Source: Azospirillaceae bacterium (GTDB lineage Bacteria; Pseudomonadota; Alphaproteobacteria; Azospirillales; Azospirillaceae). From it: DNA of 64,000 nucleotides. The position numbers were made by a program, and so were the translations under genes. Location: positions 620,001 to 684,000 of the forward strand of contig JAPWJW010000001.1 in NCBI GenBank assembly GCA_028283825.1. Direction: 5' to 3'. Positions 12,388 through 49,929 of the stretch are shown here, piece by piece (position 1 is the stretch's first letter; every line of letters begins with the position of its first letter). Under the pieces are notes generated by a model, which did not search any database, was not told where the DNA came from, and saw nothing but the letters and a program-made list of their open reading frames with translations.

Positions 12388-12491
12388 GGCATTTGATCTC
12401 GACCGATCAAATGCCTTCCTCAATCGCCGGCGTCGCCATCCGGCGGCTGCGGTCGCAGCCTAAGCCGCATGAGACTAAACCTCATGCGGCT
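12388..12491 (+). repeat. hairpin-string repeat, copy A (short form)
   Basis: This copy has an extra first hairpin, GGCATTTGATC (12388-12398) pairing with GATCAAATGCC (12405-12415). The family head CCTCAATCGCCGG begins at 12418. H1 is CGCC-ATCC-GGCG (12434-12445). H3 is GGCTGC-GGTC-GCAGCC (12445-12460). H4 is AGCCGCATGAG / CTCATGCGGCT (12463-12473, 12481-12491). The H2 hairpin and both linkers around it are missing, so this is a short form. It lies between the fused kinase gene and cbpA. Confidence 0.8.
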
Positions 12492-12499
12492 GGCTGGCA

Positions 12500-14191
12500 T
12501 TACTCCGGACGATGGGCGCGATAGGGGGTGGTGGCGGCCGGCCGGGCCAGGCGCGGCCGGGACGGTGCCGGGCGCGCCAGATGGGCCTTCGCCCGTTCCA
12601 GCACGGTGGCGGGGTCGCCGCCCGCGTCCACGACGGCCCAGGACAGGTCGCCAGCACCTTGGCGCACTTGCTGGAACAGGACCGGGATGTCGGCATCGGA
12701 CGCGTCCTTCTGGGCGGCCTGGCCGCGCAGGCGCAGGCGTTCGGTCAGAACCTCTTCCGGCGCGTCCAGCCACAGGCCGGTGAAACGCGCGCCATGATCG
12801 GCCGCGACGGCGGCGGCCATGGCCCTATCCTCGCCCCGCGCGAACACGGCGTCCAGCACCACGCTGCATCCGCTGGCCAAACAGGCGGCCGCCTGGTCGC
12901 GCAGGCGTTCGTACACCGTGGCGGTGACGGCCGCCTCATACGCCGCCGGCGGCAGGGCTTGTTCCGCGCCCACGCCGTACAGCTGCTTGCGGATCACATC
13001 GGTGCGCAGCACCCGGGCACCCGGGGCGACGCCCAACAGGGGGGCCAGGCCGCGCGCCAGGGTGGATTTGCCCGTGCCGCTGAAGCCCCCCACCGCCACC
13101 AGACGCGGCCGGCCCCGTTTCAGGAAGGACAGGGCCAGTTGCAGGTAACGGTCGGCCTCGATGGCGCCGGCGGTCTTTTGCGTCGGCGTGGTCTGGCGCC
13201 GGGCGGCGGCGGCCGTCACCTGGGCCCGCACGGCCGCGCGCACTGAGAGGAACAGGGACAATGCCGGCAGGCCGCCCAGGGCGCCGCCCTCGCGTCCGGC
13301 ACCGCCCCGGCCGGGCAGATCCTCCCCCGTCGCGTCCAGGTAACGGTTCATGACCAGGTTGGCCAGATCGCCCATGTCGCGGAAACACAGGTCCATCAAC
13401 AGGAAGGCCAGGTCGTACAGCACGTCGGTGCAGGCCAGCGACGGGTCGAACTCGATGGCGTCGAAGGGCGTGGGCACGCCATCCACCAGGCAGACGTTGC
13501 CCAGGTGCAGGTCGCCGTGGCAGTCGCGCACCCGGCCGGCCTCGCGCCGGGCGTCCAGCAGGGGGCCTTGCGCCGCCAGCGCCGCATCCACCCGGTGGTT
13601 CCAGGCACGGATGTCGGCGGCGGTGAAGGTGGTGCCCGGCTTCAGGTTGGCGCGGGTGATGGCGATGGCCTGGCGCAGGCCCTCCACCCCGCCACCGTCG
13701 GCGCGGCCGGGCTGCGCCCGGTGCAGGCGGGCCACCCGGTCGGCCAGATCCAGCATCAGGGACGGGGTCAGGCGCCCTTGCGTCGCCATGCGGTCGAACA
13801 GGGCGTCCTGGTCGAAGCGGCGCATGACCAGCAGCCAGTCGACCACATCGCCGGCGGGCAGCGGCGGCTCGTCCTCCCCCGCCGCCCATTCGGGGCCCAG
13901 GAACAGGCCGCCATGAGGGCCGATCCCGGTGCGCAGGATGGGGCGCACGCCCAGGTAAAGATGGGGGGCGAAGCGGCGGTTGATGGCCAGTTCCGCCAGG
14001 CAGAAGTGCCGCCGCCGCTCCACCGTGGAATAATCCAGATAGGAATAACGCACGGCGCGCTTCAGCTTGTAGGCGCGGTCGCCGGCCAGGAAGACGGACG
14101 AGATGTGGGTATCGATCCGTTCCACCCGCCCCCGTGCCCCGAAGGACTCCGGGTATTGCAGGAAGTCGAGCGTCTCGGTCTGGTCGTCCAT
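12500..14191 (-). CDS. fused aminoglycoside-phosphotransferase-like / P-loop ATPase protein
   Basis: 563 residues. The N-terminal half (to about 350) is an APH-type kinase fold, with the catalytic-loop motif RDCHGDLHLGNVCLVDG and the metal-binding FDAIEFDPSLACTDVLYDLAFLLMD. The C-terminal half starts near residue 375 with a Walker A motif, GGFSGTGKST, and resembles AAA_33/zeta-like kinases. This fusion is a recognised conserved bacterial family, but its substrate is unknown. An FNR-type palindrome lies 92 bp upstream, which suggests control by oxygen. A Gly-rich insertion (GRGGAGREGGALGG) interrupts the APH half. The frame is complete and both active sites look intact. Confidence 0.85.
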   Translation of the reverse strand: MDDQTETLDFLQYPESFGARGRVERIDTHISSVFLAGDRAYKLKRAVRYSYLDYSTVERRRHFCLAELAINRRFAPHLYLGVRPILRTGIGPHGGLFLGPEWAAGEDEPPLPAGDVVDWLLVMRRFDQDALFDRMATQGRLTPSLMLDLADRVARLHRAQPGRADGGGVEGLRQAIAITRANLKPGTTFTAADIRAWNHRVDAALAAQGPLLDARREAGRVRDCHGDLHLGNVCLVDGVPTPFDAIEFDPSLACTDVLYDLAFLLMDLCFRDMGDLANLVMNRYLDATGEDLPGRGGAGREGGALGGLPALSLFLSVRAAVRAQVTAAAARRQTTPTQKTAGAIEADRYLQLALSFLKRGRPRLVAVGGFSGTGKSTLARGLAPLLGVAPGARVLRTDVIRKQLYGVGAEQALPPAAYEAAVTATVYERLRDQAAACLASGCSVVLDAVFARGEDRAMAAAVAADHGARFTGLWLDAPEEVLTERLRLRGQAAQKDASDADIPVLFQQVRQGAGDLSWAVVDAGGDPATVLERAKAHLARPAPSRPRLARPAATTPYRAHRPE

Positions 14192-14282
14192 GCGGTCAGG
14201 CCTCCGATAGGGGCGGCCCCGGCTGGGTGCGGCGCCGGGGCTTCACTGGCATAAACGATAAGGCGCCCACCGGTTCCCCGCC

Positions 14283-14296
14283 TTGACCGGGATCAA
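14283..14296. promoter_or_regulatory. FNR/FnrL-type box upstream of the fused kinase/ATPase gene
   Basis: TTGACCGGGATCAA fits TTGA-N6-TCAA. It lies 92 bp before the start at 14191, a spacing close to that of the box in front of adhP. The glyQ side is nearly 380 bp away, with a repeat copy in between, so the leftward gene is the likelier target. Confidence 0.6.
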
Positions 14297-14348
14297 GGGC
14301 TGGCCGCAACCCACGGGACTTTCGTACTAATCCGGCTCATTGCGCGTT

Positions 14349-14478
14349 CCCTCAATCGCCGGGCGCGGCCATCCGGCCGCTGGGTTTCCTCAGTTTTCGG
14401 TCCGCTGACGCTCCCCAAAAACTTCCGGCGGCCCCAGTCGGGGCCTATAGCAGCATGAGATGCAGCCTCATGCCGCTG
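14349..14478 (+). repeat. hairpin-string repeat, copy B
   Basis: A full-length copy. Head: CCCTCAATCGCCGGGC. H1: GCGGCC-ATCC-GGCCGC (14365-14380). H2: AGTTTT (14392-14397) pairs with AAAACT (14418-14423) around a conserved loop containing GGTCCGCTGACGCTCCCC. H3: GGCCCC-AGTC-GGGGCC (14430-14445). H4: CAGCATGAG / CTCATGCCGCTG (14451-14459, 14467-14478). It lies between the divergent fused kinase gene and glyQ. The rest of the gap, 14479-14675, holds the glyQ leader and a possible promoter. Confidence 0.85.
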
Positions 14479-14554
14479 TACAAACCCCGCGTCCTTCGCG
14501 CCACACCCCGCGTCAGAAGCGGGGCCGCATGCCGCAAACGCGCCGGTCGGCGCC

Positions 14555-14582
14555 TTGATTTGGGGTTGGGCGCCCTTGTAAG
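14555..14582 (+). promoter_or_regulatory. possible sigma-70-type promoter of glyQS
   Basis: TTGATT (14555-14560) and TGTAAG (14577-14582) are separated by 16 bases and lie about 95 bp before the glyQ start. The fit is fair and not tested. Confidence 0.35.
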
Positions 14583-14675
14583 GTGCGCCGCAACGCAACA
14601 AAGGGCCGGGGAGGTCGGGTTTCAACGCCCGAATTGAACCTTTCCACCCTTCCAGTGGTGAAGACGGTCAAGGCA

Positions 14676-15590
14676 ATGGCGGCCTCAGGCGCGGCGAAGC
14701 TCAGTTTCCAGGGATTGATCCTGACACTCCACCAGTTCTGGTCGGAGCAGGGGGCCCTGATCCTCCAGCCCTATGACATGGAGATGGGGGCCGGTACCTT
14801 CCATCCCTCCACCACCTTGCGGGCCCTGGGTCCGACGCCGTGGAAGGCCGCCTTCGTGCAGCCGTCCCGCCGGCCCAAGGATGGCCGGTATGGCGAGAAC
14901 CCCAACCGCTTGCACCAGCATCACCAGTATCAGGTGATCCTGAAGCCCTCGCCGGCCAACGTGCAGGAGATCTACCTGGAAAGCCTGCGCCGGGTGGGCA
15001 TCGACCCCAGCCAGCACGACATCCGCTTCGTCGAGGACGACTGGGAAAGCCCGACGCTGGGCGCCTGGGGCCTGGGCTGGGAAGTGTGGTGCGACGGCAT
15101 GGAGGTGACGCAGTTCACCTATTTCCAGCAGGTGGGCGGCATTGAGTGCGAGGTCGTGGCGGCTGAGCTGACCTACGGCCTGGAACGCCTGGCCATGTAC
15201 ATCCAGAACGTCGAGAACGTGTACGACCTGGACTTCAACGGCCAGGGCGTGAAGTACGGCGACGTCTACCACCGCAATGAGCGGGAACAGAGCGCCTATA
15301 ATTTCGAGGTGGCGGACACCGCCATGCTGCTGCGCCATTTCCAGGACGCGGAGCATGAGTGCGCCGAACTGCTGAAGCGCGGCCTGGCCTGGCCGGCCTA
15401 TGAGCAGTGCGTCAAGGCCTCCCACAACTTCAATCTGCTGGACGCGCGCGGCGTCATCTCCGTCGTCGAGCGGCAGAGCTACATCCTGCGCGTCCGCGAC
15501 CTGGCCAAGGCCTGCTGCGAGGCCTGGGTGGCGGGCGACAGGAAAGTGGACTGGACGTTACCCGGCATCGCGTCCGGTAAGGGGGCCTGA
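14676..15590 (+). CDS. glyQ: glycine--tRNA ligase alpha subunit
   Basis: 304 residues from ATG 14676; an in-frame start further upstream would add a leader that homologues lack. The protein begins with [16 protein letters not shown] and keeps the family core blocks [58 protein letters not shown] and [10 protein letters not shown]. It binds ATP and glycine and forms an alpha2beta2 enzyme with GlyS to charge tRNA-Gly in the cytoplasm. glyS starts three bases after its stop, so the subunits are made from one transcript. Confidence 0.97.
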
Positions 15591-15593
15591 ACC

Positions 15594-17684
15594 ATGGCCG
15601 AGTTGCTGATCGAAATCTTCTCCGAGGAAATCCCCGCCCGCATGCAGGTGCGTGCGGCCGATGACTTCAAGCGCCTGGTGACGACCAAGCTGGCGGATGC
15701 CGGCCTGGTGTTCGAAAGCGCCATCGCCCATTCCACCCCGCGCCGCCTGACCCTGGCCGTCACCGGCCTGCCGGTGCGCCAGGCCGATGTGCGGGACGAG
15801 CGCAAGGGGCCGCGCGTCGGGTCGCCCGACGCCGCTGTACAGGGCTTCCTGCGCGGCGCCGGCCTCTCCAGCCTGGACCAGTGCGAACAGCGCGACACCG
15901 GCAAGGGCGTGTTCTGGTTCGCCGTGGTGGAAAAGGTGGGCGGGGCCACGGCCGACGCCCTGCCGGGCATCATCGACGCCGCCATCCGCGAACTGCCCTG
16001 GCCCAAATCCATGCGCTGGGGCCGCAACAGCTTCCGCTGGGTGCGGCCGCTGCATTCCATCCTGGCGCTGTTCGACGGCGCCGTGGTGCCGGGCGCCCTG
16101 GTGCTGCGGGACGGCGAGACGGACGCGGACAAGGTCACGCTGGCCTATGGCGACACCACGCGCGGCCACCGCTTCCTGGCGCCCGGTGTGCTGACCATCC
16201 GCGACTTCGCCGATTACCAGGAAAAGCTGGCCGGCGCCTTCGTGGTGCTGGACCGCGACGCCCGCAAGGCCCGCATCCTGGAACAGGCGAACGCCCTGGC
16301 GGCGGCCGACGGCCTCACCCTGCGGGACGATCCCGGCCTGCTGGACGAGGTGGCGGGCCTGGTGGAATGGCCGGTGGGCCTGATCGGCACCATCGACCAG
16401 GCGTTCATGGACGTGCCGGCGGAGGTGCTGACCACCTCCATGCGCACGCACCAGCGTTACTTCGCGCTGGAGACCGCCGAGGGCAAGCTGGCCCCGCGCT
16501 TCATCCTGATGGCCAACCGCACCACCGAAGACGGCGGCAAAGCCGTCGTGGCGGGTAACGAGCGCGTGCTGCGCGCCCGCCTGTCCGACGCCAAGTTCTT
16601 CTGGGACCTGGACCGCAAGGTGAAGCTTGAGGACCAGGCCGCCAAGCTGGCGGACATCACCTTCCATGCCAAGCTGGGCACCACGGCGGCCAAGGTCCAC
16701 CGGGTGGAAGGGCTGGCCGCCGTGATCGCCCGCGCCATCCATGCCGATGTGGACGCCACCCGCCGGGCGGCACGCCTGGCCAAGGCGGATTTGGTCACCG
16801 GCCTGGTGGGTGAATTCCCTGAGGTGCAGGGCATCGTCGGCCGCTACATCGCCTATGAGCAGGGCGAAAACGCCGCCGTGGCCGAGGCCATCGCCGACCA
16901 TTACAAGCCCCTGGGGCCTGGCGACAGCTGCCCCACCGCGCCGGTGTCGGTGGCCGTGGCCCTGGCCGACAAGATCGACACGCTGGTGGCCTTCTTCGGC
17001 ATCGATGAGAAGCCCACCGGCTCACGCGACCCCTACGCTTTGCGCCGTGCGGCCTTAGGCGTCGTCCGCCTGATCGTGGAAAACGGCCTGCGTCTGGATC
17101 TGGGTGACCTGTTCCTGGTGGCGCGCGGCCAGCTGGGCCTGGACAACGCCGCCCTGGACGGCGAACTGCTGGCCTTCTTCGCCGACCGCCTGGTGGTGGC
17201 CCTGCGTGAGAAGGGTGTGCGCCACGACCTGATCGCCGCGGCGCTGGCCGGCCGGGCCGAGGGGGATCTGGTCCGCCTGCTGGCCCGCGTGGACGCGCTG
17301 GCCGGCTTCGTCGGCACCGACGACGGCGCCAACCTGCTGGCGGCCTTCCGCCGTGCCGCCAACATCCTGCGCATTGAGGAAAAGAAGGATGGCCACGCCC
17401 ATGACGGGCTGCCGGACGCCGCCTTGCTGCAACTGGATGAGGAAAAGGCCCTGGCCGCGGCGTTGGCCCAGGCGCAGGGTGCCTCCGAACCCGCCCTGGC
17501 GCGCGAGGATTACGCCGGCACCATGGCGGCGCTGGCCAGCCTGCGGGGGCCGGTGGACGCCTTCTTCGACAAGGTGACGGTGAACGCCGACGATCCGGGT
17601 TTGCGTGCCAATCGCCTGCGCCTGCTGGCGGGCATCCGTCGCACGTTGAACCACGTGGCGGATTTCTCGGTGATAGAGGGTTGA
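15594..17684 (+). CDS. glyS: glycine--tRNA ligase beta subunit
   Basis: 696 residues, full length for the family. It starts [17 protein letters not shown], the usual beta-subunit opening, and has PWPKSMRWG and [17 protein letters not shown] as further family blocks. The C-terminal part carries the tRNA-anticodon-binding DALR-like helical region. It is the partner of glyQ just upstream. The transcript ends at a strong hairpin with a T run immediately after the stop codon, so ppdK downstream has its own promoter. Confidence 0.97.
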
Positions 17685-17687
17685 TCA

Positions 17688-17714
17688 GGGGGCCGGGCGA
17701 CCGGCCCCCTTTTT
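17688..17714 (+). terminator. Rho-independent terminator of glyQS
   Basis: GGGGGCCGG (17688-17696), loop GCGA, CCGGCCCCC (17701-17709), then TTTTT. A perfect nine-pair stem three bases after the glyS stop codon. Confidence 0.92.
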
Positions 17715-17918
17715 CATAACCGTTCGGTCACAGTCTTGGCCCTTCCGTCCGGGGCTGTTGTCTGCAACGTTTTCAGTTCAGTACGCGTACCCAAATGGGG
17801 TCGGCACCTAAGCCGGCACCCGAAAAAACATCAGTGCAGAGAAACTTCGGGGAAACCAACGCGGGTGCATACGGCCAACGACGCCGATGTCCCCGCGGAA
17901 CGTATCAGGTGAGGAACC

Positions 17919-20606
17919 ATGAGCAGCGTGAGCAAGTGGGTGTACAGCTTCGGTGACGGCAAGGCCGAAGGCCGGGCCGAGATGAAAAACCTTCTGGGCG
18001 GCAAGGGTGCCAACCTGGCGGAGATGAGCAATCTGGGATTGCCCGTGCCGCCCGGCTTCACCATCACCACTGAGCTTTGCACCTGGTTCTACGACAACGG
18101 CCGCCAATATCCGGCCGAGTTGAAGGATGAGGTGGCCGCCGGGTTGAAGGCGGTGGAGGGCATCATCGGCGCCGTGTTCGGCGACCCGGCCAACCCGCTG
18201 CTGGTCTCCGTCCGGTCCGGCGCCCGCGCCTCCATGCCCGGCATGATGGACACGGTGCTGAATTTGGGCCTGAACGACGTCACCGTGCGCGGCCTGGCCC
18301 AGCGCTCGGGCGATGAACGCTTCGCCTATGACAGCTACCGCCGTTTCATCCAGATGTACGGCAACGTTGTGCTGGACGTGGAACACCACCATTTCGAAGA
18401 GATCCTGGACAGCCACAAGCGCGACCGGGGCCTGAGCTACGACACCGACCTGGAAGCCGGCGACTGGAAGGAAGTCATCGAAGGCTATAAGGAGGTGGTG
18501 CAGCACGCGCTGGGCCGCCCCTTCCCGCAGGATGTGCAGGAACAGCTGTGGGGCGCCATCGGCGCCGTGTTCGGCAGCTGGATGAACCAGCGCGCCATCA
18601 CCTATCGCAAGCTGCACGACATCCCGGCCAGCTGGGGCACGGCGGTGAACGTCCAGGCCATGGTGTTCGGCAACATGGGCGGCGACTGCGCCACCGGTGT
18701 GGCCTTCACCCGCAACCCGTCCACGGGTGAGAACGCCTTCTATGGCGAGTACCTGATCAACGCCCAGGGCGAGGACGTGGTGGCGGGCATCCGCACGCCG
18801 CAGCAGCTGACCATCGCCGGCCGCAAGGCCAACGCGTCCGACCTGCCCTCGATGGAAGAGAGCATGCCGGAGGTGTTCCAGCAGCTGGACGCCGTGCGCC
18901 TGAAGCTGGAGCGGCACTACCGCGACATGCAGGATATCGAGTTCACGGTGCAGCAGCAGAAGCTGTACATGCTGCAGACCCGCAACGGCAAACGCACCAC
19001 CGCCGCCGCACTCAAGGTGGCCGTGGACATGGCGCAGGAAGGCCTGATCGACGAGGCCGAGGCCGTGCGCCGGATCGAGCCCAAGTCCCTGGACCAGCTG
19101 CTGCACCCGACGCTGGACCCCAAGGCGGAACGCAAGATCATCGCCAAGGGCCTGCCGGCCAGCCCGGGTGCCGCCTGCGGCAAGGTGGTGTTCTCGGCGG
19201 ACGAGGCCGAGCGCCTGTCGGAAATGGGTGAGGCGGTCATCCTCTGCCGCGTGGAAACGTCGCCGGAGGATATCCACGGCATGCACGCCGCCGCCGGCAT
19301 CCTGACCACCCGGGGCGGCATGACCAGCCACGCTGCCGTGGTGGCGCGCGGCATGGGCCGATCCTGCGTGTCGGGTGCGGGTGAACTGCGCATCGACTAC
19401 AAGACCGGCATCATGACGGTGCGCGGCCAGAAGATCGCCGCCGGTGACATCATCACCATCGATGGGTCGACCGGCGAGGTCATGCTGGGCCATGTGCCCA
19501 CCATCCAGCCGGAACTGTCGGGCGATTTCGCCATCCTGATGGGCTGGGCCGACCGCTTCCGCCGCATGAAGGTGCGCACCAACGCGGAAACCCCGCTGGA
19601 CGCCCGCACCGCCGTCAAGTTCGGGGCCGAGGGCATCGGCCTGTGCCGGACGGAACACATGTTCTTCGACACCGAACGCATCATCGCCGTGCGTGAGATG
19701 ATCGTGGCGGAGAACGAGGCCGGCCGCCGTGCCGCCCTGGCCAAGATCGCCCCGATGCAGCGCCAGGACTTCGTGGAGCTGTTCCGCATCATGGCGGGCC
19801 TGCCGGTCACCATCCGCCTGCTGGACCCGCCGCTGCATGAGTTCCTGCCCAACAGCGAGGCGGAGATGGATGAGGTGGCGAAGGCCGCCGGCACCGACAT
19901 CCAGCGGGTGCGCCACCGCGCCCTGCAACTGCATGAGGCCAACCCCATGCTGGGTCATCGCGGCTGCCGCCTGGGCATCTCCTACCCCGAAATCTATGAG
20001 ATGCAGGCCCGTTCCATCTTCGAGGCGGCGGTCGAGGTGGGCCGGGAAGGCCAGACCGTGATCCCGGAGATCATGATCCCCCTGGTCGGCACCAAGAAGG
20101 AACTGGACATCCTGAAGGGCGTCATCGACCGCGTGGCCGGTGAGGTGAAACAGGCCACCGGCGTGCAGATCGACTATCTGGTCGGCACCATGATCGAACT
20201 GCCGCGCGCCGCCTTGCAGGCGGCGGAAATCGCCAAGTCGGCGGAGTTCTTCAGCTTCGGCACCAACGACCTGACGCAGACGACGTTCGGCATCAGCCGC
20301 GACGACGCCGCCAGCTTCCTGCCCGACTATCAGCGCGCCGGCATCTTCGAGCACGATCCCTTCGTGACCCTGGATACCGAGGGCGTGGGCGAACTGGTGT
20401 CCATCGCCGCCGAACGGGGCCGCAAGACCCGTCCGGACATCAAGCTGGGCATCTGCGGTGAGCACGGCGGCGACCCGGCCTCGGTCTACTTCTGTGAGAA
20501 GGTCGGCCTCAGCTACGTCTCTTGTTCCCCCTACCGCGTGCCCATCGCGCGGCTGGCGGCGGCGCAGGCGGCCCTGATGGGTGAGAAGCCGGCCAGCGAG
20601 GCGTGA
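17919..20606 (+). CDS. ppdK: pyruvate, phosphate dikinase
   Basis: 895 residues, the usual bacterial length. It interconverts pyruvate, ATP and phosphate with phosphoenolpyruvate, AMP and diphosphate. The N-terminal ATP-grasp domain opens KNLLGGKGANLAEM. The swivelling phosphohistidine domain carries TRGGMTSHAAVVARGMG with the catalytic His at residue 471. The PEP/pyruvate barrel ends with KLGICGEHGGDPAS, where C846 is the catalytic cysteine. AGGTGAGGAACC before ATG 17919 is a good ribosome site. The 234-bp gap upstream follows the glyS terminator and must hold its promoter. A long hairpin belonging to repeat copy C begins five bases after the stop and may act as its terminator. Confidence 0.97.
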   Translation: MSSVSKWVYSFGDGKAEGRAEMKNLLGGKGANLAEMSNLGLPVPPGFTITTELCTWFYDNGRQYPAELKDEVAAGLKAVEGIIGAVFGDPANPLLVSVRSGARASMPGMMDTVLNLGLNDVTVRGLAQRSGDERFAYDSYRRFIQMYGNVVLDVEHHHFEEILDSHKRDRGLSYDTDLEAGDWKEVIEGYKEVVQHALGRPFPQDVQEQLWGAIGAVFGSWMNQRAITYRKLHDIPASWGTAVNVQAMVFGNMGGDCATGVAFTRNPSTGENAFYGEYLINAQGEDVVAGIRTPQQLTIAGRKANASDLPSMEESMPEVFQQLDAVRLKLERHYRDMQDIEFTVQQQKLYMLQTRNGKRTTAAALKVAVDMAQEGLIDEAEAVRRIEPKSLDQLLHPTLDPKAERKIIAKGLPASPGAACGKVVFSADEAERLSEMGEAVILCRVETSPEDIHGMHAAAGILTTRGGMTSHAAVVARGMGRSCVSGAGELRIDYKTGIMTVRGQKIAAGDIITIDGSTGEVMLGHVPTIQPELSGDFAILMGWADRFRRMKVRTNAETPLDARTAVKFGAEGIGLCRTEHMFFDTERIIAVREMIVAENEAGRRAALAKIAPMQRQDFVELFRIMAGLPVTIRLLDPPLHEFLPNSEAEMDEVAKAAGTDIQRVRHRALQLHEANPMLGHRGCRLGISYPEIYEMQARSIFEAAVEVGREGQTVIPEIMIPLVGTKKELDILKGVIDRVAGEVKQATGVQIDYLVGTMIELPRAALQAAEIAKSAEFFSFGTNDLTQTTFGISRDDAASFLPDYQRAGIFEHDPFVTLDTEGVGELVSIAAERGRKTRPDIKLGICGEHGGDPASVYFCEKVGLSYVSCSPYRVPIARLAAAQAALMGEKPASEA

Positions 20607-20611
20607 TGCGT

Positions 20612-20757
20612 GCGGCCTTTGATCGTGACCGATCAAAGGCCGCCCCTCAGGCGCCGGGCGCCAGCATCCGCTGGCTGGGCTATCCTCGTTCCGCCCTGCG
20701 GTGCTCACTCCGGGGCCGGCCGTCGCCGGCCGCCAGCGGCACTTCATGCCGCTGGCG
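20612..20757 (+). repeat. hairpin-string repeat, copy C, directly after ppdK
   Basis: Begins with an extra 13-pair hairpin, GCGGCCTTTGATC (20612-20624) with GATCAAAGGCCGC (20631-20643), then the head CCCTCAGGCGCCGGGC. H1: GCCAGC-ATCC-GCTGGC (20660-20675). H3: GGCCGGC-CGTC-GCCGGCC (20714-20731). H4: GCCAGCGGCA / TGCCGCTGGC (20732-20741, 20747-20756). The H2 region is divergent and I cannot pair it in the usual way. The first hairpin resembles that of copy A in loop and core (TTTGATC...GACCGATCAAA) but its flanks differ. Confidence 0.75.
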
Positions 20758-20783
20758 TTAGTGTTTTGGGTGGGAAATGAAAG

Positions 20784-22118: not shown

Positions 22119-22248
22119 CCCTCAGGTGGCGGGCGGCCCCGTCCGGGGCCTTGCCTTCCTCGCTTTTCAGTCCGCTAACGCTCCCCAAAAAGCTCCGGCG
22201 ACCGCGGTCGCGGTCTACAGCGGCATGAGCCTTTGGCTCATGCCGCTG
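22119..22248 (+). repeat. hairpin-string repeat, copy D
   Basis: H1: GGCCCC-GTCC-GGGGCC (22135-22150). H2: GCTTTT (22162-22167) with AAAAGC (22188-22193) around CAGTCCGCTAACGCTCCCC. H3: GACCGC-GGTC-GCGGTC (22200-22215). H4: CAGCGGCATGAGCC, TTT, GGCTCATGCCGCTG (22218-22231, 22235-22248), the longest H4 in the window at 14 pairs. It fills the gap between the ACT-domain gene and the end of pnuC. Confidence 0.87.
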
Positions 22249-22852: not shown

Positions 22853-22981
22853 CCAGCGGCATGAAGCTTTGACCCATGCCGCTGTAGGACGCGACCGCGG
22901 CCGCCGGAGATTTGCGGGGAACGAAGAGGACTGCAAATCGAGGAAGCCAAGCGGCCGGATGGCCGCGTCGGCGCTTGAGGA
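22853..22981 (-). repeat. hairpin-string repeat, copy E (reverse orientation)
   Basis: Read on the minus strand: head CCTCAAGCGCCGAC, H1 GCGGCC-ATCC-GGCCGC, linker TTGGCTTCCTCG, H2 ATTTGC with GCAAAT around AGTCCTCTTCGTTCCCC, H3 GGCCGC-GGTC-GCGTCC with one mismatch, H4 CAGCGGCATG / CATGCCGCTG (arms at 22854-22863 and 22875-22884). It fills the gap between the kinase gene and pnuC, and is co-directional with them, so it would be part of their mRNA. Confidence 0.85.
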
Positions 22982-30168: not shown

Positions 30169-30531
30169 TCACGCCAGCCACAGCAGGGCCAGCCCGATGG
30201 CGGCCGGCAGCGCCTGGATCATCAGGATGCGGCGGCTGACCGACCAGGCGCCGTAGGCGCCGGCGATGACGACGCAGGCCAGGAAGAAGGTCTTGATGTG
30301 CAGGCCGGCCAGCGGGTCGGGGTAGGCCAGGCCCCAGATCAGGCCCGCCGCCAGGAAGCCGTTGTACAGGCCCTGGTTGGCGGCCAGCACGGCCGACGCC
30401 TGGGCCTTTTCCAGCGATTGGCGGAAGGTGCGCAGGCCGGTGGGCTTGGTCCACAGGAACATCTCCAGCACCAGGAACCAGGCGTGCAGGGCGGCCACCA
30501 GCGCCACCACGATATTGGCGATCAAATCCAC
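30169..30531 (-). CDS. DUF1304 integral membrane protein
   Basis: 120 residues from GTG 30531, chosen because GGGGGA lies six bases upstream and because the family begins at this point (VDLIANIVVALVAALHAWFLVLEMFLWTKP). Four hydrophobic helices are visible. The signature ANQGLYNGFLAAGLIWG is intact near residues 51-67. The function of DUF1304 proteins is not known. Nothing nearby gives a clue. The last part of the gene is separated from the DUF6607 terminator by a 16-base string that resembles the head of the hairpin-repeat family. Confidence 0.88.
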   Translation of the reverse strand: MDLIANIVVALVAALHAWFLVLEMFLWTKPTGLRTFRQSLEKAQASAVLAANQGLYNGFLAAGLIWGLAYPDPLAGLHIKTFFLACVVIAGAYGAWSVSRRILMIQALPAAIGLALLWLA

Positions 30532-30596
30532 GAAATCCCCCCATTTATTGCGGCATAATCCCAGCATGCCGGTATCGCCACCATAGCATGAAAATA

Positions 30597-44114: not shown

Positions 44115-44489
44115 GCCCCACCCGCTTTGAGAACCACGTGACCCCGCGCAATCGCGCGTCCCCCGAAGCGCGTTCCCCGGGATACCGCTTCCAAGCGGCC
44201 ATGGTGTGGGAAGTGCTGGGGATTTCGTCAATGAATTTGTACCCGTCGGAAATTTTGACTCTCCAGCACGGGCCAGCCCTTCGTGGACTGCCACAGTGCC
44301 GCCACGGGCCGGCGTTAATACCCGCCGGCGCCGCGACTTGCCCGGCCCACGCCAAACGCTTGCCCCCGTGCGGGGCAGGGCGTAGGAAAGTTGAATCGGG
44401 CGAGGTTGGCGCGTCTGGTTCCCTTCCCTTGAGTGGGACCGCTGGTAGGCGCCTGCATTGGTTGGGCGGATTTCGTATCGAGGGCCTGA
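44115..44489. other. 375-bp divergent intergenic region
   Basis: No gene is visible. It must carry the promoters of the HAMP protein (leftward) and the GT4 gene (rightward). There is a lower-G+C patch at about 44215-44265, and a small hairpin TGCCCC/GGGGCA at 44361-44377. I cannot name promoter elements with confidence. Confidence 0.5.
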
Positions 44490-45677
44490 ATGCGTATCGT
44501 CCAGATTATCTTGTCCAAGGGATTCCGTGGGGCCGAGCGCCATGTCGCGGAACTGGCGGTGGCGCAGGCGCGCCACCACGAGGTGCTGCTGATCCTGCGG
44601 GCCGATTGCGCCGACGCCGGCGGTCGTTCCATCCGCGACCAGTTGCCACCGGCGGGTGAATTGCCGGGCTTGCGGGTCGTTACGGTGGGGCCCGGCCTGA
44701 TGGCGCCAGGGATCTGGAGCCATATCCGCCGCTTCCGTCCCGACATCATCCATGGCCATGGCGGCCGGGCCGGCCGCACCGTGGGCCGGCTGCGGCCCTT
44801 CCTGCCGGGCCGGCCGCCCCTGCTGGCCACCATGCACCTGGATTATCGCCGCCGCTGGTACCAGAACCACGACGCGGTGGTCGCCACCACCGACTGGCAG
44901 GCGCAGGAGGCCAAGCTGGGGGGGTTCGAGGGGCGCATCGTCCGCGTGAACCTGTGGTTCCAGCCCCATCCGGCGCCCGATGCCGGCCGCATCGCGGCGC
45001 TGCGTGCCGAAATGGGGGCAGAGGCGCTGGGGGCCACGGTGCTGCTGGGGGTGGGCCAGTTGATCCGGGAAAAGGGTTTCGATCTGCTGATCAATGCCGT
45101 GCGCGGGCTGGACCGGCTGGACCTCAAGCTTGCCATCGTTGGCGACGGTCCGGAGATGGCGGCGCTGCGCGTGCAGGCGCAAGATAGCCCGGCCATCCGT
45201 TTCCTGGGCTTTCGCGGGGACGTGAAGGACTTTTACCACGCCGCCGACCTGTTCTGCTCCCCCTCCCGGTTCGAACCGTTCGGCTTGGTGTTCCTGGAGG
45301 CGTTGCACGCCGGCGTGCCGGTGGTGGCTTCCGCCTCCGAGGGCGCCCGCATGATCCTGGAAGGGGTTGGCGACCGGGGCGTGCCGGCCGGGCTCATCCC
45401 GTCCCAGCCCGCCGGAGGATTGGCCCTGGCGCCCCTGGCGGCCGTGGGTGACGCCGACGCGCTGGCGGAATCGCTGGTCCTGGCCCTGGACACCCTGGCG
45501 CAGGCGCGCGCCGCGGGCGCGCCCTTGCGCCCCAGCCCGTCGTTGGCGGCCTATAGCCAGGCCGGCAGCCTGGAGGCCTTGGAACGGCTGTACGCCGACC
45601 TGCTGGATTCCGCGGCCAGCAACGCCGCCGCAGTGGTGGCCGGATCTAAGGCTGGGGCGCCGGCGCCAGGCCATTGA
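44490..45677 (+). CDS. family 4 (GT-B) glycosyltransferase
   Basis: 395 residues. The N-terminal half opens MRIVQIILSKGFRGAERHVAELA, the acceptor-side Rossmann fold with its Gly-rich loop. The C-terminal half has LLGVGQLIREKGFDLLINAV, AIVGDGPE and SRFEPFGLVFLEALHAGVPVVA. This includes the E-x7-E nucleotide-sugar motif near residue 262. It transfers a sugar from a nucleotide donor, most likely in lipopolysaccharide or capsule synthesis, given the GT9 and O-antigen ligase genes close by. Its 3' end overlaps the ygfZ gene tail-to-tail by 32 bp. Confidence 0.88.
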   Translation: MRIVQIILSKGFRGAERHVAELAVAQARHHEVLLILRADCADAGGRSIRDQLPPAGELPGLRVVTVGPGLMAPGIWSHIRRFRPDIIHGHGGRAGRTVGRLRPFLPGRPPLLATMHLDYRRRWYQNHDAVVATTDWQAQEAKLGGFEGRIVRVNLWFQPHPAPDAGRIAALRAEMGAEALGATVLLGVGQLIREKGFDLLINAVRGLDRLDLKLAIVGDGPEMAALRVQAQDSPAIRFLGFRGDVKDFYHAADLFCSPSRFEPFGLVFLEALHAGVPVVASASEGARMILEGVGDRGVPAGLIPSQPAGGLALAPLAAVGDADALAESLVLALDTLAQARAAGAPLRPSPSLAAYSQAGSLEALERLYADLLDSAASNAAAVVAGSKAGAPAPGH

Positions 45678-46596
45678 CCGTCAGCGGCACATCGCCGCTG
45701 GTCAGGGCCGCATCGGGCTTTTCCACATCCTCAACCCGCAGCAGGGCCAGGCCGTGCCAGCCGTCGGGGCCGGCGGCACTGCTGCGCATCTCACCCACCT
45801 CGCGCTCCTGCCAGACGACGGGTGTTCCGGGCGGCGGCAGGGGCCGGCCGTCGGTGGCCGTCACGCGCATCAGGCGCTTGCGGATCAGGGCGCGGTAGTG
45901 GGTGCGGGCGGTCAGTTCCTGCCCCATGTAGCAGCCCTTGTCGAAGGCCACGGCCGATAGCGTGTCCATGCCGTTTTCCAGCGGGATGGACTTCTCCGGC
46001 ACCAGGTCGCGGCTGCCGTCGGGCACGCCCAGCGCCAGCCGGCGCCGGGCATACGCCGCGTCGGCCTCCGGCAATGTCTCGGCCACCGTCCGGGGCAGCA
46101 GCAGGCGCAGACCCAGGCCTGCGTGGCGGGGGTCGGCATAGGCCAGGCCGGCGCCGTCCGCCAGGGCCAGAACCTGGGCGTTGCCGGCTTCGCTGCCATC
46201 GAGGACGGCGTCCAGTGCCACGGCCACGGCCCATTGGCCGCTGACGTCGGCCAGCGCCACCTTGGACCGCAGCCTGTACATGGACAGGCGCCGCAGCAAG
46301 TCGGGGGTCCGCCCACCTTCCGTTTCGATCAGCAGCGTCTCCTCGCCCGTGGCGGGGTCGGTCAGGCTGGCCACGAACAACTCGTGCAGGAACTTGCCCT
46401 GTGGCGTCAGGAACAGGGCGTAAATCGCCTGGGTGGCGCTGATCCGGCGGACGTCGTTGGTGACCAGGCCCTGAAGGAAGGTCCGGGCATCGGGGCCGGT
46501 CAGGGCCAGGACGCCCCTATCGGTCAGCCGGCCGGCACTGGTCGTCGGCAGGGTGGGCGAGGAAAAGGGCCAGGAAAAGGGAACGCCGTTGGTCAT
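45646..46596 (-). CDS. ygfZ: folate-binding Fe-S cluster assembly protein YgfZ
   Basis: 316 residues from ATG 46596. The signature FDKGCYMGQELTARTHYRALIRKRL near residue 217 contains the K-G-C-Y-x-G-Q-E motif of the GcvT-related YgfZ family. This protein uses tetrahydrofolate to help assemble or repair certain Fe-S clusters, such as that of MiaB. An upstream in-frame start would add a Pro-rich stretch without similarity. It sits inside a glycan block but is likely unrelated in function. The last 32 bp overlap the convergent GT4 gene. Confidence 0.92.
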   Translation of the reverse strand: MTNGVPFSWPFSSPTLPTTSAGRLTDRGVLALTGPDARTFLQGLVTNDVRRISATQAIYALFLTPQGKFLHELFVASLTDPATGEETLLIETEGGRTPDLLRRLSMYRLRSKVALADVSGQWAVAVALDAVLDGSEAGNAQVLALADGAGLAYADPRHAGLGLRLLLPRTVAETLPEADAAYARRRLALGVPDGSRDLVPEKSIPLENGMDTLSAVAFDKGCYMGQELTARTHYRALIRKRLMRVTATDGRPLPPPGTPVVWQEREVGEMRSSAAGPDGWHGLALLRVEDVEKPDAALTSGDVPLTVNGLAPAPQP

Positions 46597-46716
46597 GATG
46601 CCGGACCTGAACAGTTTTCCGTCGGACGGGACGGGCCCAACAGGTAAGGGGTTGCGACCGTCGCCGCAAGGGACCGGCAGCACCGGTGCCCGCAATGGTC
46701 CGCCGCCTTCACCGCA

Positions 46717-46746
46717 TTGGCAAGCGCCGGATGCCCCCTGTATAAG
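46717..46746 (+). promoter_or_regulatory. probable sigma-70-type promoter of the GT9 gene
   Basis: TTGGCA (46717-46722), 18-base spacer, TATAAG (46741-46746), 32 bases before ATG 46779. The -10 is embedded in a palindrome, CCCCCTGTATAAGGGGG, which may itself be a regulatory site. Confidence 0.6.
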
Positions 46747-46778
46747 GGGGCGGCGCCGATGGTTGCGCGGGCCGGGGT

Positions 46779-47774
46779 ATGCGTTGGTTGGGGGCCACTC
46801 TTTTGCGGGTTTTGTTCATCACCTCCACCCGGCTGGGCGATGCCGTGCTGACCACCGGCCTGCTGGGCCATCTGGTGGATACCTTGCCCCAGGCGCGCTT
46901 CACCATCGCCTGCGGCCCCATCGCCGCCCCCCTGTTCCGTGCCGTTCCCCGCTTGGATGAAATCATCGCCATGCCCAAGCGGCGCATGGCGGGCCATTGG
47001 CTGGATCTGTGGCGTCAGGTGGCCGGGCGGCGCTGGGACATGGTGGTGGATTTGCGGGACAGCGTCGTCTCATGGCTGGTCCTGGCCCGACGCCGCGCCA
47101 TTTTCCGGGGTGGCGACGACCGGCAGCCCAAGGTGGTGTCGTTGGGCCGGGTGCTGGACCTGGAGCCGCCGCCCGATCCCCGGCTGTTCCTGGATGACGC
47201 CTTGCGCGCCCAGGCCGCCGCCCTCGTGCCGGCCGGCCCGCCTGTGCTGGCCCTGGGGCCGGCCGCCAATTGGACGGGCAAGGAATGGCCGGCCGACCGT
47301 TTCGCCGCCTTGGCGCGGGATCTGGTGGCGGGCCGCCTGGGCGGTGACGCCCGCGTGATGGTCCTGGCGTCAGCGGCGGAGCGCGCGCGTTGCGCGCCCG
47401 TGCTGGAAACCCTGACGGTTGCCCTGGGGCCGGCCCGCGTCATCGATCTGGTCGGGCGGACCGATCCGCTGCTGGCCGGTGCATGCCTGGAACGGGCGCG
47501 CCTGTTCGTGGGCAACGACAGCGGCCTCATGCATGTGTCCGCCGCCGCCGGCACGCCGACCTTGGGCCTGTTCGGGCCCACGCCCATCCATCTCTATGCC
47601 CCGTGGGGACGGAACGCCGCCGCGGTCATGTCCCAGGGGGACGCAGGCGCGTCGCCGGAGGCGCGCATGGCGGCGCTGTCCCTGGAACAGGTGAAGGGGG
47701 CGGCCCTGGATCTGCTGGCGCGGACGGACACCACGGGCCGGGCGGCGCCTGTGCCAAAGTTGCGGTCTCACTAA
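46779..47774 (+). CDS. family 9 glycosyltransferase (heptosyltransferase-like)
   Basis: 331 residues of the GT-B fold. VLFITSTRLGDAVLTTGLLGHL at residues 11-32 is the GT9 opening, and ERARLFVGNDSGLMHVSAAAGTPTLGLFGPT is the family donor-site block. Members add ADP-heptose or a related sugar to lipopolysaccharide core. ATG 46779 has a good promoter 32 bases upstream. The O-antigen ligase gene follows 91 bp downstream on the same strand, so the two are probably expressed together. Confidence 0.9.
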   Translation: MRWLGATLLRVLFITSTRLGDAVLTTGLLGHLVDTLPQARFTIACGPIAAPLFRAVPRLDEIIAMPKRRMAGHWLDLWRQVAGRRWDMVVDLRDSVVSWLVLARRRAIFRGGDDRQPKVVSLGRVLDLEPPPDPRLFLDDALRAQAAALVPAGPPVLALGPAANWTGKEWPADRFAALARDLVAGRLGGDARVMVLASAAERARCAPVLETLTVALGPARVIDLVGRTDPLLAGACLERARLFVGNDSGLMHVSAAAGTPTLGLFGPTPIHLYAPWGRNAAAVMSQGDAGASPEARMAALSLEQVKGAALDLLARTDTTGRAAPVPKLRSH

Positions 47775-47865
47775 AAAGCGCTAGGTATGCCGCCGTTCCC
47801 GGGTAAAAGGTGGTTTGGGGACCGGGCCCCGCCGGATAGACGGGCGAAACGCCGACTGGAGAGAG

Positions 47866-49365
47866 ATGTCGTCCATACAGACCAAGAACCGTCTGCGGAC
47901 CAGTGCGCCGGTCATATCCTCGACCAATCAGGGCGGCATTCCCTCACCGCGCCGGACGGTGACGGCGGCGCGTGAGGTTTTCACCTGGCCGTGGATGGGG
48001 GTGACGCTGTTCCTGCTGGCGGTGCTGGGTTTCATTTGCGCCCTGGTTCCTTTGGGAACGGCGCCGGTCTTGATCAGCCTGTCCATCCTGGGGGGCGCGC
48101 TTTACCTGCTGCGCACCCACCGGCTTCCCACCTTCCTGGCGGCGCTGAAGGAGCGCGCACGGGGGCCGTTGCTGCCCATGGCGCTGTTCCTGATCCTGGG
48201 CGCGGTCTCCATCCTGTGGACCCCGGTACGCAAGGATGGCGCCGCGCAGACCCTGACCTTCCTTTACACCGTGGTTCCCTTCATCTTCTGCCTGGGCACC
48301 TTGCGTGAGGTGGATGACGACCGGCGGCGTCTGCTGATGCGCTGGCTGGTGGGCGGCATGGTGGTGGGACTGATCCTCTTCGCCATCGAGGTCATCGGCG
48401 ACCAGCCCATCTACCGCCTGGAAAAGGCGGTCGAGGGCACCAACGTCGATCATGACCGCGCGCTCAACCGCCCGGCGGTGCTGTTCACCACGCTGGCCTG
48501 GCCGGTGGGGCTGGCGCTGGCTCGGCTGGCCTGGCCGCTGGGGCGCGCCGCCTTCTCCCGGATCACGGCAGGTGCCGCGAAGGCCGCCGGCGGGCTGGCG
48601 CGGGGTGCCACGGCCGCCAACCGGCTACCGGCGTCCGTGCCCTGGGCCTGGGTTCTGCCCGCGGGCTTTTTCCTGGTGTCGCTGGGTGGCACCAGCGCCT
48701 CGGCCAAGGTGGGCCTGGGCGTGGGCTTGGCGTGCTTTGCCCTGGCCCGTTTGTCGGCGCGGCTGACCCGCGTGGTGCTGATGGTGGCGCTGCTGGCGGG
48801 CCCCACCTTGTCCATCCCCATTTCCCTGGGGCTTTACCATGCCGGCCTGACGGAAGAGACGCGCATGCCGTTCAGCTTCCGCCACCGGATTGAAATTTGG
48901 GACGTGGCCGCCCGCCGCATCCTGGAAAAGCCGCTGCTGGGCTGGGGGCTGGACAGCTCACGCCACATCCCGGATGAGGGCGAGGTGTCCAAATTCCACC
49001 CCGAATCCTCCATAATCCCCCTGCATCCCCATAATCTCTTCCTGCAAATCCTGCTGGAGCTTGGGGTGGCGGGTGGCCTGCTTTATGCTTGGTTCGGCGT
49101 GGGCGTCGTGCGCGCCATCCGCCGGTTGCCCGACTATGCCCAGCCATCGGCCTTGGCCATGGCGGCGGCGACCATCGGTGTGGGCTGCTTCTCTTACGGC
49201 GCGTGGCAGACATGGTGGCTGTGCGGCATCATGCTGTCGGTCGGCATTCTGGAACTATGCCTGCCGGTGGGGTGGTGGGCGCGGGCCGCCGGTGCCGCGA
49301 AGGCGGTGCCCGCTGGCGTGTCCGCAGGTGCGCCGGGGCGGCGGCGAACCGTCCGCCGCCGCTGA
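47866..49365 (+). CDS. O-antigen ligase family membrane protein (WaaL/Wzy_C type)
   Basis: 499 residues from ATG 47866, directly after GGAGAG. About ten to twelve hydrophobic helices are visible. The large periplasmic loop contains the ligase block FSFRHRIEIWDVAARRILEKPLLGWGLDSSRHIP and the later PLHPHNLFLQILLELGVAGGLLYAW, whose His and Arg residues are essential in WaaL. It should join O-antigen or another polymer to the lipid A core on the periplasmic side. A Wzy polymerase has the same domain, so ligase versus polymerase is not settled. The location after GT9 favours ligase. Confidence 0.88.
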   Translation: MSSIQTKNRLRTSAPVISSTNQGGIPSPRRTVTAAREVFTWPWMGVTLFLLAVLGFICALVPLGTAPVLISLSILGGALYLLRTHRLPTFLAALKERARGPLLPMALFLILGAVSILWTPVRKDGAAQTLTFLYTVVPFIFCLGTLREVDDDRRRLLMRWLVGGMVVGLILFAIEVIGDQPIYRLEKAVEGTNVDHDRALNRPAVLFTTLAWPVGLALARLAWPLGRAAFSRITAGAAKAAGGLARGATAANRLPASVPWAWVLPAGFFLVSLGGTSASAKVGLGVGLACFALARLSARLTRVVLMVALLAGPTLSIPISLGLYHAGLTEETRMPFSFRHRIEIWDVAARRILEKPLLGWGLDSSRHIPDEGEVSKFHPESSIIPLHPHNLFLQILLELGVAGGLLYAWFGVGVVRAIRRLPDYAQPSALAMAAATIGVGCFSYGAWQTWWLCGIMLSVGILELCLPVGWWARAAGAAKAVPAGVSAGAPGRRRTVRRR

Positions 49366-49446
49366 TGGCTTGCCCCGGCGGGGCTGGCGGGGGTAAATGG
49401 CAACCCCATATCCCTTGTTCCGACTAATCCTCCAAGGACCCGTGCC

Positions 49447-49791
49447 ATGCCGCCCGTGAAAAAGAACCCGCTGAACCTGAACGCCCTGCAACTGAAGACC
49501 CTGACCCTGCTGCAGGTGTTGGCGGGTATCGAAGGCGTGGGCCAGCCGGTGGTCGAGGGTGGCATCATGGTCGACCGTTTCCCCCACCCCCACGGCAATC
49601 ACTTCCACCTGGGGCCGTACACGGTGATGTCGGCCGACGCGACCGGCCTGTCGAACCCGGCTGCCTGGGCGGCGCTGGAACGCAAGGGCCTGATCAAGTC
49701 GCAGTTCCCCAACGCCGCCATCGTGACCGAGGCCGGCCTGTCCTATGACACCGGCATCCGCCAGGATATCCTGCACGGTTCCGATCACTGA
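49447..49791 (+). CDS. conserved hypothetical protein
   Basis: 114 residues, from ATG 49447 with CCAAGGACCC before it. It reads as a soluble, possibly winged-helix-like small domain: LNALQLKTLTLLQVLAG, then a His-rich loop FPHPHGNHFHLGPYTV and TGLSNPAAWAALERKGLIKSQFP. I have the impression of a family common in alphaproteobacteria, but I cannot name it or its function. The clustered histidines could bind a metal. Repeat copy F starts ten bases after its stop codon. Confidence 0.75.
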   Translation: MPPVKKNPLNLNALQLKTLTLLQVLAGIEGVGQPVVEGGIMVDRFPHPHGNHFHLGPYTVMSADATGLSNPAAWAALERKGLIKSQFPNAAIVTEAGLSYDTGIRQDILHGSDH

Positions 49792-49800
49792 TCAGGTTGT

Positions 49801-49929
49801 CCCTCAAACGCCGGGTGCACGCATCCGCGGGCTAGGCTGTCCTCGCTTTCCAGTCCGCTACGCTCCCCGGAAAGCTCCGGCGGACGCCGTCGCGTCCTAC
49901 AGCGGCATGAGAAGAGGCTCATGCCGCTG
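49801..49929 (+). repeat. hairpin-string repeat, copy F
   Basis: Head CCCTCAAACGCCGGGT. H1: GCACGC-ATCC-GCGGGC with one mismatch (49817-49832). H2: CTTTCC (49846-49851) with GGAAAG (49869-49874) around AGTCCGCTACGCTCCCC. H3: GGACGC-CGTC-GCGTCC (49882-49897). H4: CAGCGGCATGAG / CTCATGCCGCTG (49900-49911, 49918-49929). It lies between two convergent genes and could terminate either. Confidence 0.86.

What the first reader, a model, noticed from the sequence alone, without database searches (positions are those of the whole stretch)
12388..49929. Six-copy intergenic hairpin-string element with covarying stems
Copies at 12388-12491, 14349-14478, 20612-20757, 22119-22248, 22853-22981 (reverse) and 49801-49929 share a head (CCTCAAnCGCCGG), linkers (about TnGGCTnTCCTCG and TCCGGCG) and up to four hairpins. 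The stems of H1, H2 and H3 change from copy to copy but stay paired: H1 GCGGCC/GGCCGC, GCCAGC/GCTGGC, GGCCCC/GGGGCC around a constant RTCC; H2 AGTTTT/AAAACT, GCTTTT/AAAAGC, ATTTGC/GCAAAT, CTTTCC/GGAAAG around a nearly constant GTCCGCTnACGCTCCCC; H3 GGCTGC/GCAGCC, GGCCCC/GGGGCC, GACCGC/GCGGTC, GGACGC/GCGTCC around nGTC. Paired changes with constant loops argue for selection on structure. I cannot link it to a known REP, MITE or ncRNA family.
Basis: seen in the sequence. Interest (0 to 1): 0.88.

Follow-up and report, generated by a model that had tools for sequence, protein, structure and literature searches.

The report
Stop-codon-nesting mobile hairpin element
A roughly 130-base folded DNA element has spread to well over a hundred places in this soil bacterium's genome, usually right behind the end of a gene, and its full-length copies look like small transposons that duplicate three bases, sometimes the stop codon itself.

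Summary
All six copies are real; the genome (a Nitrospirillum, 7.16 Mb) holds at least 150 (capped), by extrapolation some 500. Covariation holds on 40 copies kept out of the model: 191 paired changes against 42 in shuffles. Full-length copies are miniature transposons: filled/empty sites between species 94% identical show a 3-base target duplication (two clean, TGA, each a verified stop codon; one with a diverged flank, TTA). Of 229 cores, 19 have both ends readable with TNA outside, and 17 of these carry the same triplet on both sides. Window copy 1 has TTA on both sides. TACCA ends and TNA duplication match an IS630-family element present in three copies in this genome: likely mobiliser, not proven. 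By my gene caller, 69 of 90 copies have an end within 12 nt of a facing stop codon. No Rfam match; no REP transposase in seven Nitrospirillum genomes. Unexplained: two thirds or more of copies lack the left end hairpin, yet abut stop codons, with TAG enriched; and why stems change in pairs while loops stay fixed (element-level selection or template-switch repair). New variant of a known kind (IS-mobilised mosaic MITE, like RUP/BOX).

The parts
12378..12502 (+). Copy 1, full-length type: TTA target triplet 12378-12380; element 12381-12499 (TACGCGTGGC..., left hairpin H0, head, H1 joined to H3, right hairpin H4, ...CTGGCA); TTA target triplet 12500-12502, which is the stop codon of the minus-strand ORF 12500-14191
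14349..14478 (+). Copy 2, core plus H4, no H0; the only one of the six between a divergent gene pair
20604..20760 (+). Copy 3: TGA stop codon of ORF 17919-20606 at 20604-20606, left end TGCGTGCGGCC, H0, head, H1, other H2 type, H3, H4; right triplet TTA 20758-20760 (differs from the left one)
22119..22248 (+). Copy 4, no H0; left end 4 nt after a TAA stop codon; carries the paired basal-stem variant (head GGCGG with linker TTGCC)
22853..22981 (-). Copy 5, no H0; on its own strand 3 nt after a TAG stop codon
49801..49929 (+). Copy 6, no H0; 9 nt after a TGA stop codon
30149..30168 (+). Solitary head (TGTGTTCCTCAAGCGCCGGC) without H1-H4, directly before the stop codon (TCA at 30169) of the minus-strand ORF 30169-30567 (other ORFs overlap here)

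Best explanation
The element is a mosaic, non-autonomous transposable element (MITE-like). Complete form: target triplet TNA; left palindrome H0 beginning TAC(CA); a conserved folded core (head, H1 with ATCC loop, H2, H3 with GGTC loop); right palindrome H4 ending (TG)GTA; the same TNA again. SHOWN: insertion as a unit with a 3-bp duplication at sites with an empty counterpart; location at gene 3' ends; covariation; wide recurrence. INFERRED: full-length copies are moved in trans by an IS630-family transposase whose own copies have TACCA ends and TNA duplication. Landing on TNA makes TGA and TAA stop codons harmless targets, because the left triplet restores the stop, which with purifying selection leaves copies piled up behind genes. 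INFERRED: the fixed loops and linkers, kept across families while individual copies come and go, are constrained because the element needs its folded core to spread; the arms change in pairs because only pairing matters or because the DNA palindrome corrects itself. How copies without H0 arise is not known.
For: Empty/filled sites between G002 and G006: two clean ones with TGA on both sides, the TGA closing frames of 1177 and 280 codons in both species; a third with TTA on both sides, right flank diverged, TTA not an evident stop. Of 229 cores scanned, 19 have both ends with TNA outside, and 17 carry equal triplets (these include the three sites above); in the named set 11 of 13 against 3.1 expected, no shuffle above 9; the two sets of three are too small to test. 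IS630 transposase (DDE_3; NF033545) with TACCA ends and TAA duplication, three copies in the genome. Of 30 loci with related transposases, 8 show TACC ends with equal TNA triplets (L286 and L299 overlap and may show one pair) and a ninth, L310, is doubtful. Context: 90 of 91 copies intergenic, convergent 40/90 against 86/533, divergent 4/90 against 112/533. End within 12 nt of a facing stop codon: 42/57 without and 27/33 with the loose H0 motif (uniform placement means 22.0 and 15.8). Copies 1, 2 and 5 absent in 5 of 5 congeners, copy 6 in 4 of 4. H1 motif in 15 of 385 class genomes, this one included, control 0.
Against: No autonomous copy with the element's exact ends was found. The shared end is short: contiguous TACCA in this genome, 8 bases in N. 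iridis, 11 between an element of another family and the IS of G006; the Nitrospirillum left end is usually TACGCG. Three of seven Nitrospirillum genomes have no match to this IS630 transposase at E 1e-20. Of the 30 IS loci, L288 and L300 have TACCA ends with unequal TNA triplets, and most others no resolvable ends. RUP, the IS630-linked precedent, uses TA, not TNA (PMC2229807 passages). With looser end rules, 3 of 7 readable pairs in this genome have unequal triplets. Two thirds or more of the copies lack H0, and genes facing their left end stop with TAG in 16 of 35 (genome 82 of 689; two of the 16 at odd head positions; right end 5 of 27), which TNA insertion does not predict.
Confidence: 0.72

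Rival explanations
1. Functional RNA: each copy is a 3'-UTR RNA element (terminator, mRNA stabiliser or protein-binding hairpin string) kept by the host, and stems covary under selection for the RNA fold.
For: Strong covariation; stop-codon proximity; low folding energies, z -3.1 to -5.2 over eight strands of four copies; in H1-H3 with the mini-hairpin of the 78 best rows A.C cells exceed G.T cells 47 to 8 (22 of the 47 at one position), a hint that the minus strand would be the RNA.
Against: Between tandem genes the strand is balanced: 21 with the genes, 25 against. In H1 alone A.C and G.T are 9 and 8. Most window copies are not shared with congeners. No Rfam match.
Confidence: 0.15
2. REP/BIME system moved by a tyrosine (Y1) transposase on folded single-stranded DNA; H3 on the minus strand even reads GTAGG plus palindrome in copies with H4.
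For: Palindromes, mosaic build and 3'-end location recall REPs; the REP head motif GT(A/G)G is described in PMC2817692 (passages).
Against: No Y1_Tnp match in any of 7 Nitrospirillum genomes while the same search rings in 5 of 14 controls and in 11 of the 34 genomes searched. A 3-bp duplication is seen, and known IS200/IS605 members are said to make no larger duplications (PMC2817692). GTAG is missing in the other genera read and in copies ending CCTAG.
Confidence: 0.05
3. The paired stem changes are mutational: replication template switching repairs imperfect palindromes, so covariation says nothing about function.
For: In four same-site copy pairs of 94%-identical species, 98 stem pairs show 3 double changes, all compensatory, and 7 single ones (alignments; count); independent hits would give well under one double. 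G.T intermediates are rare. The mechanism is described in PMC8794818 (abstract and start of introduction).
Against: Loops and linkers recur unchanged across families, which a neutral palindrome would not keep. No inverted H1 loop (GGAT) among 144 copies, though arm repair need not invert it.
Confidence: 0.35
4. Copies without H0 spread by a second route, separate from IS630, that places the constant head (GTTCCCTCA) a few bases behind stop codons or terminator T-tracts.
For: 58 of 91 copies lack even the loose H0 motif, 70 of 91 lack an H0 hairpin; head 2-9 nt after the stop in 26 of 35 left-facing cases; TAG 16/35 (P 7e-7); T-rich upstream positions; same-site copies with other modules or opposite orientation.
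Against: No clean duplication or end was found for them; end hairpins can be lost in place (H4 gone in G002 but present in G006 at one site); truncations are not clearly one-sided.
Confidence: 0.25

Closest known systems
RUP of Streptococcus pneumoniae (proposed to be mobilised by IS630-Spn1)
   Same: 107 bp, 108 intergenic copies, ends like those of an IS630-family element, enriched between convergent genes (PMC2229807 passages; PMC3049150 passages and section 6)
   Different: RUP targets contain TA; here the duplication is TNA. RUP is densest 50-150 bp from genes; here ends abut stop codons. The review passage reports no further structure/function signature for RUP; here a multi-hairpin core with variable paired stems recurs across families.
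BOX elements of S. pneumoniae
   Same: Modular repeat with tandem modules, predicted hairpins, ends similar to an IS, some copies encoding a gene's stop codon, enriched between convergent genes (PMC3049150)
   Different: Other IS (ISSpn2); the terms 'covar' and 'compensatory' do not occur in that paper's main text. No sequence comparison made here.
REP/BIME with RAYT transposase
   Same: Short palindromes, mosaic composites, extragenic location (PMC2817692 passages)
   Different: No Y1 transposase in seven Nitrospirillum genomes; 3-bp duplication; no constant GTAG head.
RIME/ABC mosaic elements of rhizobia (recalled; S. meliloti paper PMC2873474 seen only as a search listing)
   Same: Alphaproteobacterial intergenic palindromic mosaics
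   Different: No sequence comparison made here.

Membership tests
MITE (non-autonomous DNA transposon derivative) | Short, many copies, no room for a transposase gene | tested here: met
   about 120-135 bp; at least 150 copies
MITE (non-autonomous DNA transposon derivative) | Terminal inverted repeats | tested here: met
   TACCA...TGGTA in relatives, TACGCGCGGCA/TACCAGCGGCA here; full-length copies only
MITE (non-autonomous DNA transposon derivative) | Target site duplication with empty sites | tested here: met
   two clean sites and one with a diverged flank; 17 of 19 equal triplets. Not met for copies without H0
IS630-mobilised MITE (RUP-like) | Ends shared with an IS630 element in the same genome | tested here: inconclusive
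   TACCA plus TNA shared, similarity short
IS630-mobilised MITE (RUP-like) | TA target duplication | tested here: not met
   TNA instead; the two clean empty sites (TGA) have no TA at the junction
IS630-mobilised MITE (RUP-like) | Moved in trans by the transposase | not testable with these tools
   needs a transposition assay
REP/RAYT (BIME) | Cognate Y1 transposase in the genome | tested here: not met
   0 of 7 Nitrospirillum genomes
Rfam RNA family | Match to a curated covariance model | tested here: not met
   none in the window at gathering score; none at E<=1 for copy 6
BOX | boxA-boxB-boxC sequence and ISSpn2-like ends | not tested
   known from paper text only

The most novel reading that the evidence does not exclude
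The folded core (fixed loops, freely changing paired stems) is itself a recognition structure for a mobility or copying machinery, so that selection acts on the fold of the element while it moves. It has spread through many alphaproteobacterial families, borrows IS630-type ends in some copies, and in others uses a second, undescribed route that lands it a few bases behind stop codons.
Probability: 0.22. Interest if true: 0.85.

Novelty: new variant of a known kind. Interest (0 to 1): 0.62.

Why it matters
It gives a large set of natural replicates of one folded sequence with variable paired arms and fixed loops, so that selection on structure can be set against mutational repair of palindromes. 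It names a candidate mobiliser with an unusual TNA duplication and shows a way for transposons to settle harmlessly at stop codons. It also warns that strong covariation alone does not prove a functional RNA.

Tried and rejected
REP/RAYT: looked for and not found in the genus. Head CGCCGG pairing with the CCGGCG before H3 (a multibranch closing stem, seen in some single-sequence folds): dropped because head variants covary with the GGC linker of H1 instead. My first column choice for that basal stem was wrong; one search is the corrected count.

Orientation-specific 3'-UTR function: strand balance against it. One-sided truncation as in target-primed reverse transcription: module counts in 864 kb did not show a clear polarity; there 25 heads stand alone, 11 inside genes, against 6 for the reversed pattern, and some of the other 14 are copies whose H1 my pattern missed. 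BLAST against plasmid and phage collections with one copy: no match. Direct repeats flanking copies without H0: read by eye, nothing consistent.

The same-site test of paired changes is small because few copies are shared between G002 and G006 (18 hits in 920 kb, 3 more in 392 kb). The patterns for H2 and H3 and for H3 loops failed, and their zeros and scrambled counts are not used; one search replaces them. The loose H0 motif (33 of 91) takes in a few copies without a hairpin (seen); a hairpin criterion gives 21. Genes are from my own codon-usage script, not an annotation; a first run crashed on masked letters.

Papers: PMC2229807, PMC2817692, PMC4495683 passages; PMC3049150 passages and section 6; PMC8794818 abstract and start of introduction; all others only as search listings. 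No listing of the eight searches aimed at such an element (all of these but) showed a paper that describes it; that covers only the held open-access library. PMC4495683 was looked at for duplications: TA.
Full report
WHAT WAS CHECKED. The six copies are at the stated places and strands. The window is G000:C1:620001-684000 of a 7.16 Mb, five-contig genome. Its genus is Nitrospirillum: congener G006 has a 2,007,914-base contig, and a named record of just that length, N. viridazoti CBAmc chromosome 2, carries the same motif. The strict pattern gives 92 copies in the genome, reversed control 0. The covariance model R1 (31 copies) lists 150, the cap, the weakest at E 7e-23. In 864 kb of the genome I kept 91 distinct copies of about 45 bits or more: 57 in 400 kb of C3, 28 in 400 kb of C1, 6 in the window. 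The C3 stretch was chosen because it looked dense, so this is not a random sample; the C1 figure would mean some 500 in the genome. The fetched letters include 10,000 masked ones.

COVARIATION. On the seed alignment 97.0% of cells pair, with 132 double changes against 38.5 in shuffles. On 40 copies not used for the model: 95.9% paired, 25 of 33 pairs with a change on both sides, 191 double changes against 42.2, covariation score 0.431 against 0.133 shuffled and at most 0.082 slid. The head is not a free linker: its GCC pairs with GGC after H1, 5 double changes in 120 cells against 0.6 shuffled, though the number of such pairs (2) was reached by 30 of 500 shuffles. H1 loops in 144 copies: ATCC 126, GTCC 11, seven others, never the inverted GGAT. 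In H1 of 157 distinct Nitrospirillum copies, 608 of 628 cells are Watson-Crick, 9 A.C, 8 G.T, 3 other; 140 copies are perfect. In the 78 best rows of 864 kb, H1-H3 with the mini-hairpin have 47 A.C and 8 G.T cells, 22 of the former at one helix-end position; H4 has 20 and 26.

ANATOMY. Full-length copies read: TNA | TAC... H0 | CCCTCA head | H1 | H2 | H3 | H4 ...GTA | TNA. H0 (GCGGCATTTGATCGTGACCGATCAAATGCCGC type) is present in 33 of 91 copies by a loose motif, some of them false, and in 21 by a hairpin criterion. H2 has at least two types, and H4 is missing or replaced in part of the copies without H0. In other genera the core head-H1-CTTGGCT is the same while H2, H3 and the ends differ; those loci were fetched by a fixed H1 stem, so stem variety was not judged on them. 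Tandem arrays occur, for example three 126-128-bp units in C3 of this genome and H1 units 54-90 bp apart elsewhere.

HOW IT MOVES. Between G002 and G006 (94.2% identical over the first 60 kb), two insertions have clean empty counterparts and leave TGA on both sides; the TGA closes an open frame of 1177 and of 280 codons, the same in the species with and without the element. A third leaves TTA on both sides and the empty site has one TTA, but its right flank has diverged and TTA is not an evident stop codon. Over all material scanned (89 cores in G000, 119 in named loci, 21 in G002/G006), 19 copies have recognisable ends with TNA outside; the triplets are equal in 3/3, 11/13 and 3/3 (the last are the three sites above). 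For the 13, 3.1 were expected and no shuffle of 2000 exceeded 9; the two groups of three are too small to test. With looser end rules, 21 copies in 864 kb have an H0 hairpin. In 7 of them the triplet beside an end is exactly the stop codon of the neighbouring gene (5 left, 2 right); 7 have both ends readable, and 4 of these, window copy 1 among them, have equal triplets.

A search of the sequence in hand for other pairs of such ends 250-3000 bp apart with matching inverted ends and equal triplets found one, 1168 bp long, in C3. It holds HTH and DDE_3 reading frames of the IS630 family. Three near-identical copies lie in the genome, each with TACCAACGAGCGCTGATGGC / TACCAAAGAGCGTTAATTAC ends and TAA on both sides. 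Of 30 related transposase loci examined, 8 show TACC ends with equal TNA triplets (two of them, L286 and L299, overlap and may show one pair). A ninth, L310, is doubtful because two sister copies show no such ends; L288 and L300 have TACCA ends with unequal TNA triplets; the rest gave no resolvable ends. Element ends in N. iridis (TACCAACGGCATTTGATC) and in a genome of another family (TACCAGCGAGCC) share 8 and 11 contiguous bases with IS ends (TACCAACGAGCGCTGATG in G000, TACCAGCGAGCGCTGATG in G006); in this genome the shared stretch is TACCA. I take this as good but not decisive evidence that this IS630 group moves the full-length element. A TNA duplication differs from the TA reported for the IS630-linked RUP.

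WHERE IT SITS. By my own gene caller 90 of 91 copies are intergenic: 40 between convergent, 46 between tandem (21 with the genes, 25 against) and 4 between divergent genes; among all gaps of 20 bases or more 86 are convergent and 112 divergent of 533 (P 2e-8 and 5e-5). An end lies within 12 nt of a facing stop codon in 42 of 57 copies without the loose H0 motif (uniform placement in the same gaps: mean 22.0, maximum 30) and in 27 of 33 with it, after subtracting 38 nt for H0 (mean 15.8, maximum 22). Genes facing the left end of copies without H0 stop with TAG in 16 of 35 cases (two at odd head positions), genome 82 of 689; at the right end 5 of 27. The left-end excess is not explained by TNA insertion.

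TURNOVER. At the matching sites of five congeners, copies 1, 2 and 5 are absent from all five and copy 6 from the four that cover it. The gap of copy 3 has other, longer content without a model hit. The gap of copy 4 holds a copy in three of five (E 1e-5 or better), one in the same and two in the opposite orientation, and a weak hit in a fourth; I cannot say whether any of these is the same insertion. Between G002 and G006 a few copies are shared. In four such pairs, 98 stem pairs show 3 double changes, all compensatory, and 7 single ones, beside changes in loops and one loss of H4. At another shared site the two species carry quite different H1 and H2 modules.

SPREAD. The model finds relatives in 26 of 59 genomes, 11 of 37 genera. 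The exact H1 motif occurs in 15 of 385 alphaproteobacterial genomes, this one included, from nine families; control 0 in all. Named carriers of one stem variant include Niveispirillum, Aerophototrophica, Oleisolibacter, Roseomonas sp. HF4 and Acetobacteraceae assemblies.

JUDGEMENT. Full-length copies are a MITE-like mobile element with an IS630-type signature. The kind is known (RUP, BOX). The TNA duplication, at times of the stop codon itself, the constant-loop, variable-stem core found across the class and the end-less majority make it a new variant. Because single copies turn over while the loops stay the same across families, I think the fold matters for the element's own spread; template-switch repair of palindromes is a serious alternative for the paired changes, and host-level RNA function is less likely given the strand balance.

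Noticed in passing
L092, G003:C8 about 90930-98093 (between the counterparts of window 9844 and 9848): Congener G003 carries a roughly 7.1-kb insertion inside an otherwise colinear stretch; content not examined.
   Followed up: no
window 22119-22248 and counterparts in G002, G003, G006: One intergenic gap holds copies of the element in four species in either orientation, as if it were hit repeatedly or inverted.
   Followed up: partly
L333 (G000:C3:1216800-1218200): Three near-identical head-to-tail units of 126-128 bp, with the same stems: local tandem expansion of the core.
   Followed up: partly
L325, L326, L327 (genomes G202, G374, G228): In other families H1 units are arrayed 54-90 bp apart, some next to a GGCCTCAATGGCC-like hairpin.
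   Followed up: partly
L079 (G020), a short way beyond the element: A solitary palindrome resembling the element's end hairpin stands alone near a full element, suggesting solo ends.
   Followed up: no
L224:7765-8932 (G000:C3:1987765-1988932): IS630-family insertion sequence with two reading frames, TACCA ends and TAA duplication; three copies in the genome.
   Followed up: yes
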